A stretch of DNA of 64,000 nt from Aquimarina rhabdastrellae (GTDB lineage: Bacteria > Bacteroidota > Bacteroidia > Flavobacteriales > Flavobacteriaceae): NCBI GenBank assembly GCA_947387485.1, contig CANDNT010000011.1:1-64000 (forward strand), given 5' to 3'. Positions 39,247 through 50,497 of this stretch are shown piece after piece. The notes under the pieces are model-generated. The model was not told the DNA's origin, ran no database searches, and saw only the letters and a program-made list of their open reading frames with translations. The position numbers and the translations under genes were made by a program. How positions within the stretch are numbered: position 1 is the first letter of the stretch; each line of letters starts with the position of its first letter.

Positions 39247-39254
39247 TATTTTTG
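39247..39254 (+). promoter_or_regulatory. -7 promoter box TATTTTTG for mcrBC
   Basis: TATTTTTG fits TAnnTTTG. It overlaps the alternative TTG start at 39252, so transcription beginning at about 39261 favours ATG 39282 as the McrB start. Confidence 0.4.
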
Positions 39255-39281
39255 TTGCTCGAACCATCAAAATCATTCCCC

Positions 39282-40997
39282 ATGCCAATTGAAACTGATA
39301 CACATATTATATCAGAGCAATTAGATTTTATATTTTTGGATCTAATCCAACAATACAAAAAACGTATTAGTATATACGGTTTGGGAAGTGAATTAGATAA
39401 ATGGAATCTTATACAACAGTATAAAAACAAACCTGATCTTACTACCTATGATTTTGCCGAAGAATTGGGTACTATTAAATACAAAAGTTTTATCTATCAT
39501 GGAGCAAAACAGGTTATAGATCATATCCTTAAAGAACAACCTGAAGCTTATAAGCAACATTTTCAGTTTCTGTTTGACGAATCCTATCCGCTTACAGAAC
39601 GTATCAATAGTTTTGGTAATGATATTGCAAAACTCTATGGTCAACTTGAAGAAAAATACACACATCATCACGATGAACGTACTATAGCTACTTTTCTTGT
39701 ATTTTATAATCCCGAAAAATATACACTTTATAAGAATTCTTTTTATAAAGAGTTATGTGATCGTGCAGGTATTACGCCCAAGCCTAAAGGGGAAAAATAC
39801 GTGCATTATCTACAATTAATCGATGTTTTTATAAAACATTATATTATTAAGGATGAAGCACTATTAGCTTTAGTAGAACAAGTACTTCCGGTAGATGCTT
39901 ATCAAGATCCTACACATACGCTTCTGGCACAGGATATTTTATACACGACTTTAGAAAAAGAAGAAACGCTTACACCATATACTCAAAATTTAGAGCCAGA
40001 ACAGCTAGAAGAAACTACTTCTACATATACTTCTCCGCTCAATCAAATACTATATGGTCCTCCAGGTACTGGTAAAACTTATCATACCATCTATAAGGCT
40101 TTAAGTATTATTGAAGAAAAAGATGAAAGTGATTTAAAACATGAGGAAGAACATCTTATAAAACAACGTTTTGATACTTATACTACTCAAGAGCAAATTA
40201 CTTTTACTACATTTCATCAAAGTATGAGTTATGAGGATTTTATAGAAGGAATCAAGCCCGTATTACATCAAGAAACCAAGCAACTCTCTTATATTATAGC
40301 TCAAGGAGTTTTTAAGCGTATTGCTACATTAGCTCATGAAAATACAGATCAATCTTATGTATTGATTATAGACGAAATCAATCGTGGAAATGTTTCTCAA
40401 ATCTTTGGAGAACTCATTACTGCCATAGAAGCCGATAAACGTTTTGGTCATAAGGATGCATTATCCATTACCTTACCTTATTCAAAAGAAGCTTTTACAG
40501 TACCCAAAAACTTATATATCATAGGTACTATGAATACTGCCGATCGTTCTATTGAAGCATTGGATACAGCTTTGCGCAGACGTTTTGCTTTTATAGAAAT
40601 GATGCCAGAATTAGCACCTATAGCACAAACTTCTACGCTTAGGTTTCAGCAAGATAAAACTTTGGCTGATGTATTAGATATCATGAATAAACGTATAGCG
40701 GTATTATTGGATCGCGATCATATGTTAGGTCATTCTTATCTTATGCATATTGAGACCACCGAAGCATTGGCGGCTACTTTTAAAAACAATATTATTCCTC
40801 TATTACAAGAATATTTTTATAATGACTACGGAAAAATAGGTCTTGTTTTAGGAAAAGGTTTTGTACAAAAAGTCACTTTACAACCTCATTTTTCTTTTGA
40901 TTATGAAGGCAAGGAAGATTTTGATAAAACAGCATATACCCTTCAACCCATTCACTCAGAAATGATTATTCAAGCTATCAATTGGTTATTAGACTAA
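39282..40997 (+). CDS. mcrB: McrB-like AAA+ GTPase of a modification-dependent restriction system
   Basis: A 571-residue motor subunit. The C-terminal AAA+ GTPase domain has Walker A LYGPPGTGKT (about 259), TFHQSMSYEDFIEGIKPVL, Walker B VLIIDEINRGNVSQIFGEL, the McrB signature MNTADRS (417) and LDTALRRRFAFIEMMPE. The N-terminal 230 residues, where the modified-DNA-binding domain sits, are not recognisable and probably set the substrate specificity. Directly followed by McrC with 0 bp spacing. Together they cleave DNA with modified bases such as methylcytosine or phage hypermodified bases. Defence role by family knowledge. Confidence 0.9.
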   Translation: MPIETDTHIISEQLDFIFLDLIQQYKKRISIYGLGSELDKWNLIQQYKNKPDLTTYDFAEELGTIKYKSFIYHGAKQVIDHILKEQPEAYKQHFQFLFDESYPLTERINSFGNDIAKLYGQLEEKYTHHHDERTIATFLVFYNPEKYTLYKNSFYKELCDRAGITPKPKGEKYVHYLQLIDVFIKHYIIKDEALLALVEQVLPVDAYQDPTHTLLAQDILYTTLEKEETLTPYTQNLEPEQLEETTSTYTSPLNQILYGPPGTGKTYHTIYKALSIIEEKDESDLKHEEEHLIKQRFDTYTTQEQITFTTFHQSMSYEDFIEGIKPVLHQETKQLSYIIAQGVFKRIATLAHENTDQSYVLIIDEINRGNVSQIFGELITAIEADKRFGHKDALSITLPYSKEAFTVPKNLYIIGTMNTADRSIEALDTALRRRFAFIEMMPELAPIAQTSTLRFQQDKTLADVLDIMNKRIAVLLDRDHMLGHSYLMHIETTEALAATFKNNIIPLLQEYFYNDYGKIGLVLGKGFVQKVTLQPHFSFDYEGKEDFDKTAYTLQPIHSEMIIQAINWLLD

Positions 40998-42215
40998 ATG
41001 GCGATTATACAAAAATATGAGCACGATAAATTATTGATTAACGAAAGTGGCTTTACTCACGCTCACTGGAAAGCTTTTGTTAAACTCAATACGCTTCATG
41101 GTGGTAAATATTTTGAAGTCTTACATAACGGACTCAAGTTTAATCAATATGTTGGAGTCATTCAAGTAGATGATCTTTTGGTCGAAATCTGTCCAAAAGC
41201 TGATCGTCATGGTGATCATTCTAGATGGCAACATATGCTAATTCCTATGCTTAAAGCTTGTAATAAAATTAAAACTTATAGTCATGGTTTTGCTCAAGTA
41301 AGTCAGCAAAATCTTAATCTATTAGAGCTTTACTTTGAACTCTTTCTTAAAAATATAGAAAAACTACTTCGTTTAGGATTAATCAAAAAATATCATTTAC
41401 ATACACAAAATACTAAAGTATTAAAAGGTAAGTTACAATTTGCAAAACATCTACAACACAATCTAATACACCAAGAACGGTTTTATACTACACATCAAGT
41501 ATATGACAATGAACACTTATTGCATCAAGTTCTTTATAAAGCACTTACTATTGTTAAACAATATACTCATGGTACTCGATTACATGCCTTGACACATCGT
41601 ATTGCTATTGCTTTTCCTATTATTACATTAGAATCAACACTTAATGAAAAACTGTTCGATACATTTACATTTAATCGTAAAACAGCACCTTATCAAGATG
41701 CTTTTGAACTTGCAAAATTGATCATTCTTAACCATTCGCCAAACATCAAGGGAGGTAAAGAACGTATGATTTCTTTACTTTTTGATATGAATCAGTTATG
41801 GGAAGAATATATCTTCTTACAACTCAAAAAACATTTGGTTAACATTCCTGATTATAGTGTTAAACGTCAACCTTCTAAAGCTTTTTGGAAATCAAAAGTA
41901 GTACGTCCTGATATTGTTATTACCAACAATGCTCGGCAAACCACTTATATTATTGATACAAAATGGAAGCTTCCTATCCATCATAATGCTTCTATAGCAG
42001 ATTTAAGGCAAATGTATAGCTATACTCGTTTATGGAATGCTCAAAAAGCATTATTACTCTATCCTGGAGAAGTTGCATCTAATTCATTTCATCCTTTTAA
42101 GCCCAAAGATATTTATACACATTATTGTAAAATAGGCTTTGCTACTGTTATGAATACTCAACAGCAATTAGATACTACTATAGCTGCACAAATTATGAAT
42201 CAATTAGTTAGCTAA
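40998..42215 (+). CDS. mcrC: McrC-like endonuclease subunit
   Basis: A 405-residue nuclease subunit. N-terminal beta domain (KAFVKLNTLHGGKYFEVLHNGLKF, GVIQVDDLLVEICPKAD), then a helical region, and C-terminal PD-(D/E)xK nuclease motif: RPDIVI (P304-D305) followed by YIIDTKWK (D320-x-K322). It starts immediately at the McrB stop, so both subunits are made from one message. Intact active site suggests a functional restriction enzyme. Confidence 0.9.
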   Translation: MAIIQKYEHDKLLINESGFTHAHWKAFVKLNTLHGGKYFEVLHNGLKFNQYVGVIQVDDLLVEICPKADRHGDHSRWQHMLIPMLKACNKIKTYSHGFAQVSQQNLNLLELYFELFLKNIEKLLRLGLIKKYHLHTQNTKVLKGKLQFAKHLQHNLIHQERFYTTHQVYDNEHLLHQVLYKALTIVKQYTHGTRLHALTHRIAIAFPIITLESTLNEKLFDTFTFNRKTAPYQDAFELAKLIILNHSPNIKGGKERMISLLFDMNQLWEEYIFLQLKKHLVNIPDYSVKRQPSKAFWKSKVVRPDIVITNNARQTTYIIDTKWKLPIHHNASIADLRQMYSYTRLWNAQKALLLYPGEVASNSFHPFKPKDIYTHYCKIGFATVMNTQQQLDTTIAAQIMNQLVS

Positions 42216-46948: not shown

Positions 46949-47449
46949 ATGATCTATGCATTTGATACTTATTATACAGTAACTACTGCAAAAACTGTTT
47001 GTCTTGGATTTAAGAATTGGACAGATGAAACCCCTGTTATTTCGCTACATGAAACTATATCAGAAATTAATGATTATGAAAGCGGAGCATTTTACAAACG
47101 TGAACTCCCTTGTATTTTGAGTATCCTTAAACAAGTAGTTTTACAAGACGGTGATATCTTAGTTATTGATGGCTATGTAGTTTTAGATGATCAAGCAAAA
47201 TTAGGTTTAGGTGGCTATCTCTATCATGAGTTTAAGCAAAAATATCCTGTTATAGGTGTTGCCAAAAATAATTTTACAGCTATTACTACTTTAAAACGTG
47301 CCGTATTACGTGGCGAAAGTAAAAAAGCTTTATACATTACTGCTTTAGGAATAGACCTAGATATTGCATCGTAACAAATACAACATATGAAAGGTGATTA
47401 TCGTATGCCTACACTTTTAAAACTTTTGGATTCTTTAAGTCGCAGTTAA
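46949..47449 (+). pseudogene. endonuclease V-like gene with internal stop
   Basis: The ORF up to the TAA at 47372-47374 encodes 141 residues of an endonuclease V fold: catalytic Asp in AFDTYY, Glu in KRELPCIL, Asp in VIDGYV, and VIGVAKNNF. Endonuclease V cleaves DNA or RNA beside inosine. Reading on in the same frame past the TAA gives QIQHMKGDYRMPTLLKLLDSLSRS up to a TAA at 47447-47449, which matches the expected C-terminal helix of this family (MxGDxRxPxLLxxxDxL). The terminator follows the second stop directly. A nonsense change (CAA to TAA) or readthrough are both possible; the shortened protein would lack only the last helix. Confidence 0.65.
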
Positions 47450-48399: not shown

Positions 48400-48723
48400 A
48401 TGTCAGGATCTTCAGGAGGAGGATATGTGCCTCCACAAAGCAATAGTTTCTTGGATTGTGAAACAGGAAAATTTAGTACATACGTATCATCAATTGATAT
48501 TGATGTTCTAAAAAATCTAAATATTGGTGATATTCTTGAAGTTGAATTATTATCCAATAAAATAATATTATCAAACAGTAATGGTGAAAATTTGGGTTCC
48601 ATAATAAATCAAAAAAACCAAAATCTTGAAAAATGTATTAATCAAGGTTTTGAATTTGAAGCAAAAATAATTTCCATTGACTCTCCAGCCTGTCAAGTTT
48701 TAATAAATTCTAAAAAATTATGA
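48400..48723 (+). CDS. small protein with Gly/Ser-rich N-terminus
   Basis: A 107-residue protein of unknown family. It starts MSGSSGGGYVPPQSNSF, an extended flexible tail, then DCETGKFSTYVSSIDIDVLKNLNIGDILEVELL, IILSNSNGENLGSI, LEKCINQGFEFEAKIISI and CQVLINSKKL, all strand-like and fitting a small beta-barrel or OB-like fold. Its stop overlaps the next gene's ATG (ATGA at 48720), so the two are coupled. I recall similar Gly-rich small proteins beside nucleotide enzymes in other genomes, but cannot name a family. It is a candidate scaffold or modification target of the operon. Confidence 0.6.
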   Translation: MSGSSGGGYVPPQSNSFLDCETGKFSTYVSSIDIDVLKNLNIGDILEVELLSNKIILSNSNGENLGSIINQKNQNLEKCINQGFEFEAKIISIDSPACQVLINSKKL

Positions 48724-49907
48724 TATCAATTATCGGAGGAACATATCAAGAAGTAAATTTAGAACATAATACTTTTGAGATATTTGGATCTGGTTTAAGA
48801 AGTTCCTATTTTTTTCTAGAAAATAAAATACCAGTTCATTTTCATACGTCTGGTAATTCTAAAATAAAAGATCTTTTAGAAGAATATAAAAAAGTCTATA
48901 ACAATTTTAATTATTCCTTGAAAGAAAGTGATTTGATTACATTCAAATATGACTTTCCCATTGACAATCCAAGAATCTTACCAAATCCATTAACTATTGA
49001 AAAAACAGCTCCTATAAATGTTATTGATGAAAACATCTTATGTTTTGGGATGTTAGAATCATCTTTTAAACTTAAAGCTCAAAAAGCGATTTACGATCCT
49101 CAAACATCAATCAATCCCATAAAGTTTAGCCAATTTGCTCAAAGTAAATCACTAATATATATAGTTAATTATAATGAAGCTAAATCCATTTCAAATTCAG
49201 ATAATCTTTCTGAAATAAAAAAATTCTTCTTTGAAAAAGAAAACGTTTATGCTTTAATCATAAAAAATGGTCCTTTTGGAGCCTTTCTATATTATAATAA
49301 TGAGGAATTTAAAATACCTTCATATATAACAAATAAAGTTACTAAAATAGGTTCTGGAGATATTTTTACATCAAGCTTTGCTTATTATTGGATGGTCAAA
49401 AAAAATTCACTTGAACAATCAGCTATAAAAGCCTCAAAATCAACCGCTATTTTTTGTGATAAAAATTGTTTCATAGATATTGATCACTATGAAAGTTTTG
49501 AATATCAAGAAAAAAAACATAAAGATCTATCTAATAAACAAATATATTTAGCATCTCCATTTTTTAGTTTATCAGAAAAAATTCTTGTAGAAAAAATCAG
49601 AGATTCTTTTCTCAATCTCAAAGTTAAAGTGTTTTCTCCTATGCATGATGTAGGTATTGGTAACTCTATTGATATTGCTATACAAGACTTAGAAGCATTA
49701 AATAACTCTGATATTATTTTTTGTGTATTTGATGGTTTAGATTCAGGTACTTTAATTGAGGCAGGAGTTTCAATGATTAAAGGAAAAAAAATAATTGCCT
49801 ATCATAGTAATATTAATCAAGAGTCATTATTAATGTTAAAACCATCGAATCTAAAATCTTTTAATGATTTAACAACTGCTATATATCACACTATATGGAA
49901 TTTATGA
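48720..49907 (+). CDS. PfkB-kinase / nucleoside 2-deoxyribosyltransferase fusion
   Basis: A 395-residue two-domain enzyme. Residues about 1-250 form a PfkB/ribokinase-type fold (MISIIGGTYQE start; LIIKNGPFGAFLY; KIGSGDIFTSSFAY, with the catalytic-base Asp214 of the GAGD motif as GSGD). Residues about 270-395 are a nucleoside 2-deoxyribosyltransferase-like domain: IYLASPFF, FSPMHDVGIG, DLEALNNSDIIFCVFDG, DSGTLIEAGVS with nucleophile Glu347. This predicts handling of a nucleoside, ribosyl phosphate or base. Overlapping both neighbours by 4 bp (ATGA). Confidence 0.75.
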   Translation: MISIIGGTYQEVNLEHNTFEIFGSGLRSSYFFLENKIPVHFHTSGNSKIKDLLEEYKKVYNNFNYSLKESDLITFKYDFPIDNPRILPNPLTIEKTAPINVIDENILCFGMLESSFKLKAQKAIYDPQTSINPIKFSQFAQSKSLIYIVNYNEAKSISNSDNLSEIKKFFFEKENVYALIIKNGPFGAFLYYNNEEFKIPSYITNKVTKIGSGDIFTSSFAYYWMVKKNSLEQSAIKASKSTAIFCDKNCFIDIDHYESFEYQEKKHKDLSNKQIYLASPFFSLSEKILVEKIRDSFLNLKVKVFSPMHDVGIGNSIDIAIQDLEALNNSDIIFCVFDGLDSGTLIEAGVSMIKGKKIIAYHSNINQESLLMLKPSNLKSFNDLTTAIYHTIWNL

Positions 49908-50497
49908 AAAAAGCTATATTATTATCAGGTGGTATAGATTCAATATGTCTTGCTTACAATATTAAGCCTGATATAGCATATACAATTGACTATGGACAAA
50001 GACCTGCAAAAAGAGAAATTTATGTTTCCAAATATATTTGTGAAGAGCTTAAAATAAAACATGAGATTATTAGTATTAATTGTAATAAATTAGGTTTTGG
50101 TAGTTTAGCTGGGAATCAAATAAAAAACCATAATTCACCATCCGAAGAATGGTGGCCATACAGAAATCAGCTGATAATAACTCTTGCTCTTATGAAATGT
50201 ATTCAAGATAAAGTAACTGAATTACATTTAGCATCAGTAAAATCTGATAATTTTCATAAAGATGGTACTAAAAAATTTTATCAGTTGATTAATGATTTAG
50301 TAAAATATCAAGAAGGTCATATAAAAATTAAATGTGAAACTACAGATTATTATAGTCATGAATTAGCTCAAATTTACTCAGTTCCAAAAAAGTTATTATT
50401 AATGGCTCATTCATGTCATATATCAAATACTTCTTGTGGTAAATGCTCTGGGTGTATAAAACAACAACGCGTTCGATACGAATTAAGCATAGAATAA
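49904..50497 (+). CDS. QueC-like ATP-dependent ligase
   Basis: A 198-residue QueC/ExsB-type protein. ATP pyrophosphatase PP-loop LLSGGIDSICL (SGGIDS at 8-13) at the N-terminus; TIDYGQRPAKREI; WWPYRNQLIITLALMKC; and a C-terminal Zn site HSCHISNTSCGKCSGC (C-x6-C-x2-C-x2-C). QueC converts 7-carboxy-7-deazaguanine to preQ0. No queD, queE or queF is nearby, so it is probably a diverged member, as in the defence proteins QatC and Cap9. ATG 49904 is chosen because it overlaps the upstream stop (ATGA). Confidence 0.8.
   Translation: MKKAILLSGGIDSICLAYNIKPDIAYTIDYGQRPAKREIYVSKYICEELKIKHEIISINCNKLGFGSLAGNQIKNHNSPSEEWWPYRNQLIITLALMKCIQDKVTELHLASVKSDNFHKDGTKKFYQLINDLVKYQEGHIKIKCETTDYYSHELAQIYSVPKKLLLMAHSCHISNTSCGKCSGCIKQQRVRYELSIE

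What the first reader, a model, noticed from the sequence alone, without database searches (positions are those of the whole stretch)
48400..50497. Coupled operon: Gly-rich small protein, PfkB-NDT fusion and QueC-like ligase
Seen: three genes joined by two ATGA overlaps, with intact PP-loop and Zn motif in the QueC-like protein, and both a GSGD motif and a DSGTLIEAG motif in the fusion. Known: QueC makes preQ0 from 7-carboxy-7-deazaguanine and needs QueD/QueE, which are not nearby. QueC relatives QatC and Cap9 work in phage defence; from memory, Cap9 is reported to attach a deazaguanine to a protein N-terminus. Inference: the small protein may be the carrier or target, and the kinase/deoxyribosyltransferase may prepare a nucleobase or nucleotide, giving a new nucleobase-protein conjugation or antiphage pathway. 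It sits in a defence-flavoured region with McrBC.
Basis: partly seen in the sequence, partly recalled or inferred. Interest (0 to 1): 0.9.

Follow-up and report, generated by a model that had tools for sequence, protein, structure and literature searches.

The report
Likely nucleobase-tagging defence operon
Three joined genes, found together across distant bacteria and archaea, look like a machine that attaches a DNA-letter-like base to the loose tail of a small protein with a DNA-binding-type fold, probably as part of a mobile defence against viruses.

Summary
In detail: a 107-aa protein, a PfkB-nucleoside-deoxyribosyltransferase fusion and a QueC-like ligase, joined by two ATGA overlaps. The association is conserved: of 80 loci collected by the QueC-like gene alone, 79 carry the fusion and 76 the small protein (the other four are truncated or broken). 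The small protein is a low-confidence (probably disordered), near-invariant Met-Ser-Gly tail on a HIRAN-fold domain (Z 13.0 to lp_0118; 9.4-10 to HLTF HIRAN). The QueC-like model resembles Cap9, the type IV CBASS deazaguanine-protein ligase, most (Z 21.8; QueC 18.8; QatC 15.3) and keeps Cap9's guanine-reading Asp (109/109). Fuller operons add an Ogg-type glycosylase, a SagB-type oxidase, an adenine methylase and a dGTPase; many lie on plasmids or islands, in one tested case beside Gabija. The QueC-PfkB pairing is in print (PF06508 'Cluster 4', Libby 2026, guessed as purine salvage); my searches found no report of the HIRAN-fold partner or the full operon. Best reading: a new nucleobase-protein conjugation module, probably anti-phage. 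The conjugate, the base and the defence role are inferred. Gly at position 2 never co-occurs with the oxidase (0/8, against 76/97 for Ser/Thr), hinting at an N-terminal azole; this is not significant once kinship is considered.

The parts
48400..48723 (+). small protein S: MSG tail plus HIRAN-fold domain (107 aa)
   Evidence: model pLDDT 87.4, residues 1-20 at 61-66; HIRAN fold by Foldseek and VIA
48400..48459 (+). N-terminal tail starting Met-Ser-Gly, probably flexible, proposed acceptor of the base
   Evidence: start-[S/G/T/C]-G in 88 of 89 starts chosen by motif; 23 of 24 when only one start codon is possible
48460..48720 (+). HIRAN-fold domain, residues 21-107
   Evidence: VIA Z 13.0 to 3k2y, 9.4-10.0 to HLTF HIRAN
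48720..48723 (+). ATGA stop/start overlap S-F
   Evidence: sequence
48720..49907 (+). PfkB-NDT fusion protein F (395 aa)
   Evidence: Pfam PF00294 and PF05014
48720..49541 (+). PfkB-type kinase half; GSGD catalytic Asp at 49359-49361
   Evidence: Asp 109/109
49542..49904 (+). nucleoside 2'-deoxyribosyltransferase half; nucleophile Glu of DSGTLIEAG at 49758-49760
   Evidence: Glu 108/109
49904..49907 (+). ATGA stop/start overlap F-Q
   Evidence: sequence
49904..50497 (+). QueC-like ATP-dependent ligase Q (197 aa from this start)
   Evidence: PF06508 1e-18; model pLDDT 94.1; Cap9 Z 21.8
49925..49942 (+). PP-loop SGGIDS
50255..50263 (+). His-x-Asp (H118, D120), the place of Cap9 Tyr115/Asp117 that hold the deazaguanine
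   Evidence: alignment to 9nto and 2pg3; D 109/109, H 104/109; role of Y115/D117 from PMC13279940
50414..50455 (+). Zn-binding Cys cluster of the CH(x)5CxxCxGCxK type
   Evidence: four Cys 109/109; motif of Libby 2026 Cluster 4

Best explanation
The operon is the minimal form of a mobile nucleobase-protein conjugation module. Shown by sequence and models: a QueC-like PP-loop enzyme, nearest in fold to Cap9, is encoded (in every intact locus examined) with a HIRAN-fold protein that has a near-invariant Met-Ser-Gly start on a variable linker, and with a PfkB-NDT fusion. Inferred: (1) the initiator Met is removed; (2) the QueC-like enzyme adenylates the carboxylate of a guanine-like base, most likely 7-carboxy-7-deazaguanine (CDG) made by the host's QueD/QueE, and joins it to the N-terminal amine of the HIRAN-fold protein, as Cap9 does to its CD-NTase; (3) the PfkB-NDT enzyme acts on the (deoxy)nucleoside side, moving deoxyribose between bases and phosphorylating the nucleoside, either to free or supply the base or to put a sugar-phosphate on the tagged one; (4) the HIRAN-fold domain brings the tagged protein to exposed DNA ends, giving an anti-phage response. 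Fuller versions add an oxidase, an Ogg-type glycosylase/AP lyase, an adenine methylase and a dGTPase. Step 2 is the best supported of the inferred steps; steps 3 and 4 are weak.
For: Of 80 loci picked by the QueC-like gene only, 79 have the fusion and 76 the small protein. The small protein's N-terminus is conserved while the linker varies. Confident HIRAN-fold model with a low-confidence N-terminal tail. The QueC-like model is nearest to Cap9-CdnD (Z 21.8, rmsd 2.1, 174 aligned), then QueC 18.8 and 17.5, QatC 15.3. The residue at Cap9 Asp117 is Asp in 109/109. Acceptors MGGS (CD-NTase) and MGTS (QatB, proposed) are reported. Host CDG route: QueE-like hits in 48 of 50 and QueD-like in 43 of 50 genomes tested. 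Mobility and defence context: plasmids, E. coli chromosomes (22 of 5,426 genomes with a match; the three looked at are islands with integrases), Gabija beside one of them, dGTPase over the 'antiphage_dGTPase' cut-off in the Citrobacter copy. A variant locus joins PfkB, Ogg-HhH, Cap9-type QueC, a TIR-TGT fusion and further TIRs.
Against: No biochemistry is known to me for any member. Position 2 is Ser, not the Gly that Cap9 modifies, in 78 of 89. Cap9's stacking Tyr is His here. Two of 50 operon-bearing genomes gave no QueE-like hit and seven no QueD-like hit, so CDG may not be the base in all hosts. QueE is also universal in the sampled family (60 of 60), so its presence says little. No CD-NTase, TGT or obvious killing effector was seen among the window genes scanned. 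PADLOC has no family for the small protein (best 0.012) or the fusion, and none below E 0.02 for the Ogg-type proteins tested. Defence enrichment of the neighbourhoods was not tested against a control. The fusion's role is not explained by Cap9 chemistry.
Confidence: 0.55

Rival explanations
1. Small-molecule pathway: the QueC-like enzyme amidates or otherwise activates a free purine or 7-deazapurine, and PfkB-NDT salvages or remodels its nucleoside (the 'purine salvage' proposal). The HIRAN-fold protein is only a regulator or scaffold.
For: Published guess for Cluster 4. NDT and PfkB catalytic residues intact. The NDT half's profile matches named deoxyribosyltransferases. Neighbours include a dGTPase and a VUT-type transporter in two loci (Pfam-tested in one).
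Against: It does not explain why a protein with a fixed N-terminus and an unrelated fold is in every intact operon examined, nor the closer structural match to Cap9 than to QueC.
Confidence: 0.17
2. Modified-deoxynucleotide pathway: dGTPase yields deoxyguanosine, NDT swaps guanine for a QueC-made deazaguanine derivative, PfkB phosphorylates it, and the product poisons phage DNA synthesis or marks DNA that the Ogg-type glycosylase then attacks.
For: dGTPase family in 19 of the 80 loci and Ogg-type HhH in 59. Ogg catalytic Lys and Asp invariant in 19 aligned. dGTPase HD motifs kept in the consensus of 22. Deoxyribosyltransferases use deoxyguanosine (general knowledge).
Against: dGTPase is absent from most loci, and neither gene was found beside the window's operon. 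No kinase to triphosphate or polymerase recurs in the operon. The conserved N-terminus is unexplained.
Confidence: 0.15
3. A DNA-repair or oxidative-stress module (HIRAN fold, Ogg-type glycosylase, guanine nucleotide clean-up) that happens to ride on mobile elements, not a defence system.
For: HIRAN fold, Ogg2-type glycosylase/AP lyase, dGTPase. One E. coli copy sits next to a heat-resistance island.
Against: The minimal window version has no repair enzyme in the operon. QueC-like ligases are not known to me in base repair. Patchy and often plasmid-borne spread.
Confidence: 0.1
4. Ordinary queuosine metabolism: this is the genome's QueC making preQ0 for tRNA.
For: The genome has Tgt, QueE-like and QueD-like genes but no canonical-strength QueC.
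Against: In the window's family, of 60 sampled genomes only the window's own has a QueC hit of this type and one other (G617, 131 bits) a stronger one, yet QueE is in 60 of 60: the family does without this gene. In 33 of 50 operon genomes a canonical QueC (>180 bits) coexists. YPDC is replaced by HxDG.
Confidence: 0.03

Closest known systems
Cap9 of type IV CBASS (N-terminal deazaguanylation)
   Same: Minimal QueC fold, best structural match (Z 21.8), guanine-reading Asp, a G-x-G-[D/E/S/T]-L-x-G stretch aligned in both (window reads GFGSLAG), partner with a fixed N-terminus
   Different: Partner has a HIRAN fold and is not a CD-NTase; acceptor is Ser-Gly rather than Gly-Gly; Tyr to His; no TGT-family Cap10 among the recurring neighbours; a PfkB-NDT enzyme is always present
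QatB/QatC of qatABCD
   Same: QueC-family enzyme plus a partner with a disordered N-terminal tail and conserved first residues (MGTS)
   Different: QatC has N- and C-terminal extensions and Thr/Thr in place of Tyr/Asp; QatB is helical; QatA and QatD were not seen here
PF06508 'Cluster 4' (Libby et al. 2026, PMC13329287)
   Same: Exact Zn motif CH(x)5CxxCxGCxK and a PfkB-NDT neighbour in ~89%: this is the same QueC subfamily
   Different: That paper puts it under metabolic pathways/purine salvage; the words HIRAN, hypothetical, small protein, Ogg and dGTP do not occur in its main text (supplements not seen)
HIRAN domain proteins (HLTF, Rad5) and lp_0118
   Same: Fold: Z 13.0 lp_0118, 9.4-10.0 HLTF, 8.9 Rad5
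   Different: Stand-alone, with a conserved N-terminal tail; 13-17% identity in these rows; no sequence-profile match; DNA binding untested
Canonical QueC
   Same: PP-loop, Zn site, fold
   Different: HxDG in place of YPDC, below the QueC equivalog cut-off, coexists with canonical QueC in 33 of 50 genomes

Membership tests
PF06508 Cluster 4 (Libby 2026) | Zn motif CH(x)5CxxCxGCxK | tested here: met
   Window sequence; four Cys 109/109, His 105/109, Lys 108/109
PF06508 Cluster 4 (Libby 2026) | PfkB-NDT fusion neighbour in the operon | tested here: met
   Window; 79 of 80 loci
PF06508 Cluster 4 (Libby 2026) | YGQ(x)6E motif as printed | tested here: inconclusive
   Spacing is YGQ(x)5E here; Y and E 109/109, Q 106/109
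Type IV CBASS / Cap9 | QueC fold with Tyr/Asp nucleobase site | tested here: inconclusive
   Asp 109/109 but Tyr is His in 104/109; best fold match is Cap9
Type IV CBASS / Cap9 | CD-NTase partner in the operon | tested here: not met
   Partners are the HIRAN-fold protein and PfkB-NDT; no CD-NTase among the window genes scanned nor among the seven families that recur in 22 or more loci
Type IV CBASS / Cap9 | Acceptor N-terminal Gly at position 2 (MGGS) | tested here: not met
   Window has MSGSS; Ser in 78 of 89, Gly in 7
Type IV CBASS / Cap9 | Covalent 7-amido-7-deazaguanine on the partner | not testable with these tools
   Needs mass spectrometry
qatABCD | QatC extensions and QatA/QatD neighbours | tested here: not met
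   197-aa single QueC domain; no KAP ATPase or TatD in the three genes and the neighbours scanned
HIRAN domain | HIRAN fold over the whole domain | tested here: met
   Model residues 21-107: Z 13.0 to 3k2y, 9.4-10.0 to HLTF HIRAN entries, 85-87 residues aligned
HIRAN domain | Match to a HIRAN sequence profile | tested here: not met
   Window protein: only OB_cyt-4 at 0.077; scan of 77 members names no HIRAN family among the 25 shown of 28. Hence 'HIRAN-fold', not filed as a HIRAN family member by sequence
HIRAN domain | Binding of a free 3' end of single-stranded DNA | not testable with these tools
   Suggested for HIRAN in PMC4666394 (passages)
Canonical QueC | YPDC substrate motif and NCBIfam equivalog score | tested here: not met
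   HxDG; TIGR00364 63.3 bits against cut-off 150.3
Nucleoside 2'-deoxyribosyltransferase | YLAGPF-like and DxGTxxExG catalytic motifs | tested here: met
   Glu 108/109, Gly-Thr 109/109; window reads YLASPF; PF05014 43.9 bits, cut-off 28.8

The most novel reading that the evidence does not exclude
The ligase uses both QueC half-reactions on the protein. It first joins the base's carboxylate to the N-terminal Ser/Thr as an amide, then activates that amide, as QueC does on the way to the nitrile, so the side-chain hydroxyl closes an oxazoline. In fuller operons the SagB-type oxidase turns this into an oxazole. PfkB-NDT then builds a deoxyribose phosphate on the protein-borne base, giving a HIRAN-fold protein that carries a nucleotide-like head and is handed to DNA ends. 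This would be a new kind of protein modification: a nucleobase fused to a RiPP-like azole. Support: Gly at position 2 never occurs with the oxidase (0 of 8) while Ser/Thr does in 76 of 97. One lineage, L091, shows Gly and no oxidase (405 nt between its QueC and glycosylase ORFs) next to relatives L252 and L122 with Ser and oxidase. The window's own lineage lacks the oxidase, so there the product would be an amide or oxazoline.
Probability: 0.15. Interest if true: 0.95.

Novelty: new variant of a known kind. Interest (0 to 1): 0.8.

Why it matters
Nucleobase-protein conjugation has been reported for type IV CBASS (2025 preprint, abstract seen) and proposed for Qat (2026), where QatC's reaction is still unsolved. 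This would be a further, independently organised case, present in both bacteria and archaea. Its small single-domain partner and few extra enzymes make the chemistry directly testable in E. coli, in which 18 to 22 of 5,426 complete genomes carry it. It also turns a protein family currently filed as purine salvage into a testable defence and protein-modification hypothesis, and gives the HIRAN fold a possible new role.

Tried and rejected
Ordinary queuosine metabolism was rejected on active site, context and coexistence with canonical QueC. Chance adjacency was rejected by recurrence. Of 58 of 295 class genomes with a fusion hit, one is the window's own; the other best hits (E 2e-8 or weaker, mostly residues ~140-250) look like ordinary PfkB kinases. 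The 11 phage records hit hold only distant QueC-like genes, about 30% identity or less. In IMG/VR only 8 of the 80 kept loci are close (38-48% identity, one partial). The small protein has no Pfam or PDB sequence match of note; the HIRAN idea came from reading the alignment and was then tested by model and fold search. lp_0118, the best fold match, is not named HIRAN in its entry title.

HMMs: those for the small protein, fusion, QueC and HhH were built from window and plasmid copies, so they are independent of the 80 loci. Those for the oxidase, methylase and dGTPase were built from clustered members of all loci, the 80 included, so their counts are partly by construction.

Position-2/oxidase test: 109 rows. 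Dropped from the first set of 97: loci without a small-protein hit (L055, L056, L060, L061, L112, L135) and without a recognised start (L067, L132). Dropped from the second set: L146 (no small protein in the stretch), L148 (two copies), L152 (QueC cut), L226 (near copy of L227) and L244 (no recognised start). Two rows (L074, L128) had no downstream context. L122 was set by hand to Ser because its Shine-Dalgarno site fits MSG. Starts in the first set were picked by motif; those of the 20 second-set rows were read by eye. Fisher p 1.5e-5 ignores kinship. The tree is a quick one without a mixture model, with a long-branch warning that touches L150 (a Gly row); on its starred branches 4 independent pairs exist, of which on average 2.4 change in the expected direction, 0 in the other and 1.6 not at all, which cannot reach significance.

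Defence-gene enrichment of the flanks: 120 flank proteins were drawn but not scanned, because no matched control was available. HIRAN DNA-binding residues were not compared. PADLOC named no family for four of the five Ogg-type proteins (L055, L056, L070, L050) nor for that of L042; L087 gave only chance-level matches. So the recalled OGG/QueC/TGT ancillary set of type IV CBASS is confirmed by no call. Literature searches for prior reports; the library holds open-licence papers only. Papers: PMC13329287, parts 1-3 of 5 of the text and found passages; PMC13279940, parts 1-2 of 6 and found passages; PMC11996544, abstract (all that is held); PMC4666394, found passages.
Full report
Observation. The recurring 4-nt overlap with the fusion argues for a QueC-like start at 49904. 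McrBC lies at 39252-42215. The operon is somewhat AT-rich (26.4% GC against 29.8% for the window, about the 6th percentile), and the window has no tRNA.

Association. tblastn in 72,556 plasmids found the fusion in 39 records and the QueC-like gene in 28; the weakest include canonical queC genes and proteins that match only the PfkB half. In these 80, HMMs found the fusion in 79, the small protein in 76, an Ogg-type HhH protein in 59, a SagB-type oxidase in 58, a D12 adenine methylase in 27 and a dGTPase in 19 (maps). The four loci without the small protein are L060, L112 and L135, cut by the contig end, and L061, where the fusion is a fragment. The loci were chosen by QueC alone, so the fusion, small protein and HhH counts are independent evidence; the oxidase, methylase and dGTPase models were built partly from these loci. 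The window and its nearest relatives (L058, L059, L062-L066) are short forms: S-F-Q, in L058, L059 and L065 with a dGTPase.

Spread. Frequencies at E<=1e-30 are 7 of 395 genomes of the window's phylum including its own, 3 of 369 in the class of a Buttiauxella genome including that seed, and 2 of 372 in a Planctomycetota phylum sample including its seed. E. coli: 22 of 5,426 genomes have a match and 18 cover at least 80% of the query. Haloarchaeal plasmids carry it too. The pattern is sparse, cross-phylum and often on plasmids or integrase islands. In E. coli VREC0761 it sits beside GajA (847.7 bits) and GajB (501.3 bits), that is, Gabija. In E. coli H6 it sits between heat-resistance genes and tRNA-Sec with an integrase.

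The small protein. Starts chosen by motif give position 2 as Ser 78, Gly 7, Thr 3, Cys 1 and position 3 as Gly 88 of 89 (one of the seven Gly, L122, is better read as Ser). Without that choice, 23 of 24 sequences that offer only one start codon begin M[S/G/C]G; the exception, L067, is a partial ORF that contains an unknown residue. The linker varies: whole proteins run from 102 to 362 aa. Invariant residues in A3 are M1, C20, G66 and C79. AlphaFold2 with 65 sequences gives pLDDT 87.4, the first 20 residues at 61-66. Foldseek's first 14 hits are lp_0118 and HLTF HIRAN chains (E 5.7e-5 to 7.9e-3). VIA Z is 13.0 for lp_0118, 9.4-10.0 for HLTF HIRAN and 8.9 for Rad5; Hachiman HamB follows at 8.0-8.6 and SmpB at 7.0 and below. 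No Pfam or PDB sequence match supports it, so I call it HIRAN-fold. HIRAN is described as a domain suggested to recognise 3' ends of single-stranded DNA and found standing alone in bacteria (PMC4666394, passages). In two haloarchaeal copies the domain is in tandem (L045, L049).

The QueC-like enzyme. The profile matches QueC (2pg3, 1.1e-14) and Cap9 (9nto, 3.3e-14) about equally. The model (pLDDT 94.1) is nearest to Cap9-CdnD: Z 21.8, rmsd 2.1 over 174 residues, against 18.8 and 17.5 for QueC and 15.3 for QatC. In Cap9, Tyr115 stacks on the base and Asp117 reads its Watson-Crick edge, and QatC has Thr at both places (PMC13279940). Here the pair is His (104/109) and Asp (109/109). So a guanine-type base remains plausible, with a changed stacking face. 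A G-x-G-[D/E/S/T]-L-x-G stretch lines up with Cap9's GSGELVG and is not seen in the two QueC rows (both Gly 109/109; window GFGSLAG). This protein is Libby et al.'s Cluster 4 by its Zn motif and neighbour, apart from one-residue spacing in the YGQ motif.

The fusion. Both active sites are kept (GSGD Asp 109/109; NDT Glu 108/109). The NDT half's named PDB matches are deoxyribosyltransferases (best 6evs, 5.8e-10). Its role is the least explained. A kinase fused to a glycosyl-transfer domain could free a base from a nucleoside, or build a nucleotide on a new base.

Accessory genes. HH is Ogg2-type: PF22175, PDB 8-oxoguanine glycosylase/AP lyase 8.5e-19, with invariant Lys166 and Asp185 in 19 aligned. 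NTR is SagB-type: TIGR03605 1.6e-14, below its cut-off; PDB CyaGox and SagB-type dehydrogenase 7e-17, BmdC 1.3e-13. dGTPase: NF041026 558 bits, cut-off 400, in the Citrobacter copy; the Flavobacterium copy (L058) fits other dGTPase models better. A variant, L056, carries PfkB, a TIR-TGT fusion, an Ogg-HhH, a QueC that fits PADLOC's QueC better than the window's does (98.7 against 52.2 bits), and further TIRs. This suggests a link to Cap9/Cap10-like machinery.

Substrate supply. The own genome has a QueE-like gene (66.8 bits to TIGR03365; 107.7 to TIGR04322, below its cut-off), three PF01242 (QueD-like) genes and Tgt, but no canonical-strength QueC. Of 50 operon genomes, 48 have a QueE-like hit at E<=1e-3 (44 at E<=1e-9), 43 a PF01242 hit, and 33 a QueC hit above 180 bits. 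PF01242 also covers other pterin enzymes (general knowledge). The window's family has QueE in 60 of 60, and one genome besides the own with a QueC hit above 60 bits, so supply is plausible but not specific.

Position 2 and the oxidase. Gly 0 of 8, Cys 0 of 2, Ser/Thr 76 of 97 with the oxidase (including 20 loci gathered afterwards). This fits an azole-forming step, but the phylogenetic test has too few independent switches.

Verdict. A conserved, apparently uncharacterised nucleobase-ligase module with a HIRAN-fold partner. It works like Cap9 at the ligase step (inferred) and is not a member of type IV CBASS or Qat by the tests above. The pairing of QueC-like and PfkB-NDT is published. The HIRAN-fold acceptor, the extended operon and the conjugation reading were not found in print in the searches listed under Tried and rejected.

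Noticed in passing
own genome and 60 sampled genomes of its family: QueE-like genes are in 60 of 60 genomes, but besides the own operon only one genome (G617, 131 bits) has a QueC hit above 60 bits: the family seems to make CDG without a recognisable preQ0 synthase.
   Followed up: partly
L056 (Agrobacterium leguminum pTi plasmid): Variant operon: PfkB fusion with degenerate NDT, TIR-TGT fusion, Ogg-type HhH, Cap9-type QueC, then TIR, DUF4231, TIR; no CD-NTase annotated in the stretch.
   Followed up: partly
L044 8468-9043, L057 7504-8043: A VUT-type (queuosine-precursor salvage) transporter lies just downstream of the module on two rhodobacterial plasmids.
   Followed up: no
L052 1471-4279, L242 6491-8788: Multiubiquitin, ThiF-family and DUF6527 genes (a ubiquitin-like conjugation cassette) sit next to the module on two plasmids of unrelated hosts.
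   Followed up: no
L045, L049: Haloarchaeal small proteins carry two tandem HIRAN-like repeats; L049 also has a very long acidic linker.
   Followed up: no
L148, L123: A second small-protein plus fusion pair follows the QueC gene (order S-F-Q-S-F; L123 is cut at its start).
   Followed up: no
L053 6772-7491, L241 5585-6307: An Mrr-type restriction endonuclease takes the place directly after the QueC gene where other loci have the oxidase (Pfam-tested for L053, annotation only for L241).
   Followed up: no
window 46949-47374: 141-aa ORF with a weak partial Endonuclease V match (PF04493, 25.0 bits), perhaps a remnant.
   Followed up: no
L225 (E. coli H6): The full seven-gene module lies between a heat-resistance gene cluster and an integrase at tRNA-Sec.
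   Followed up: no
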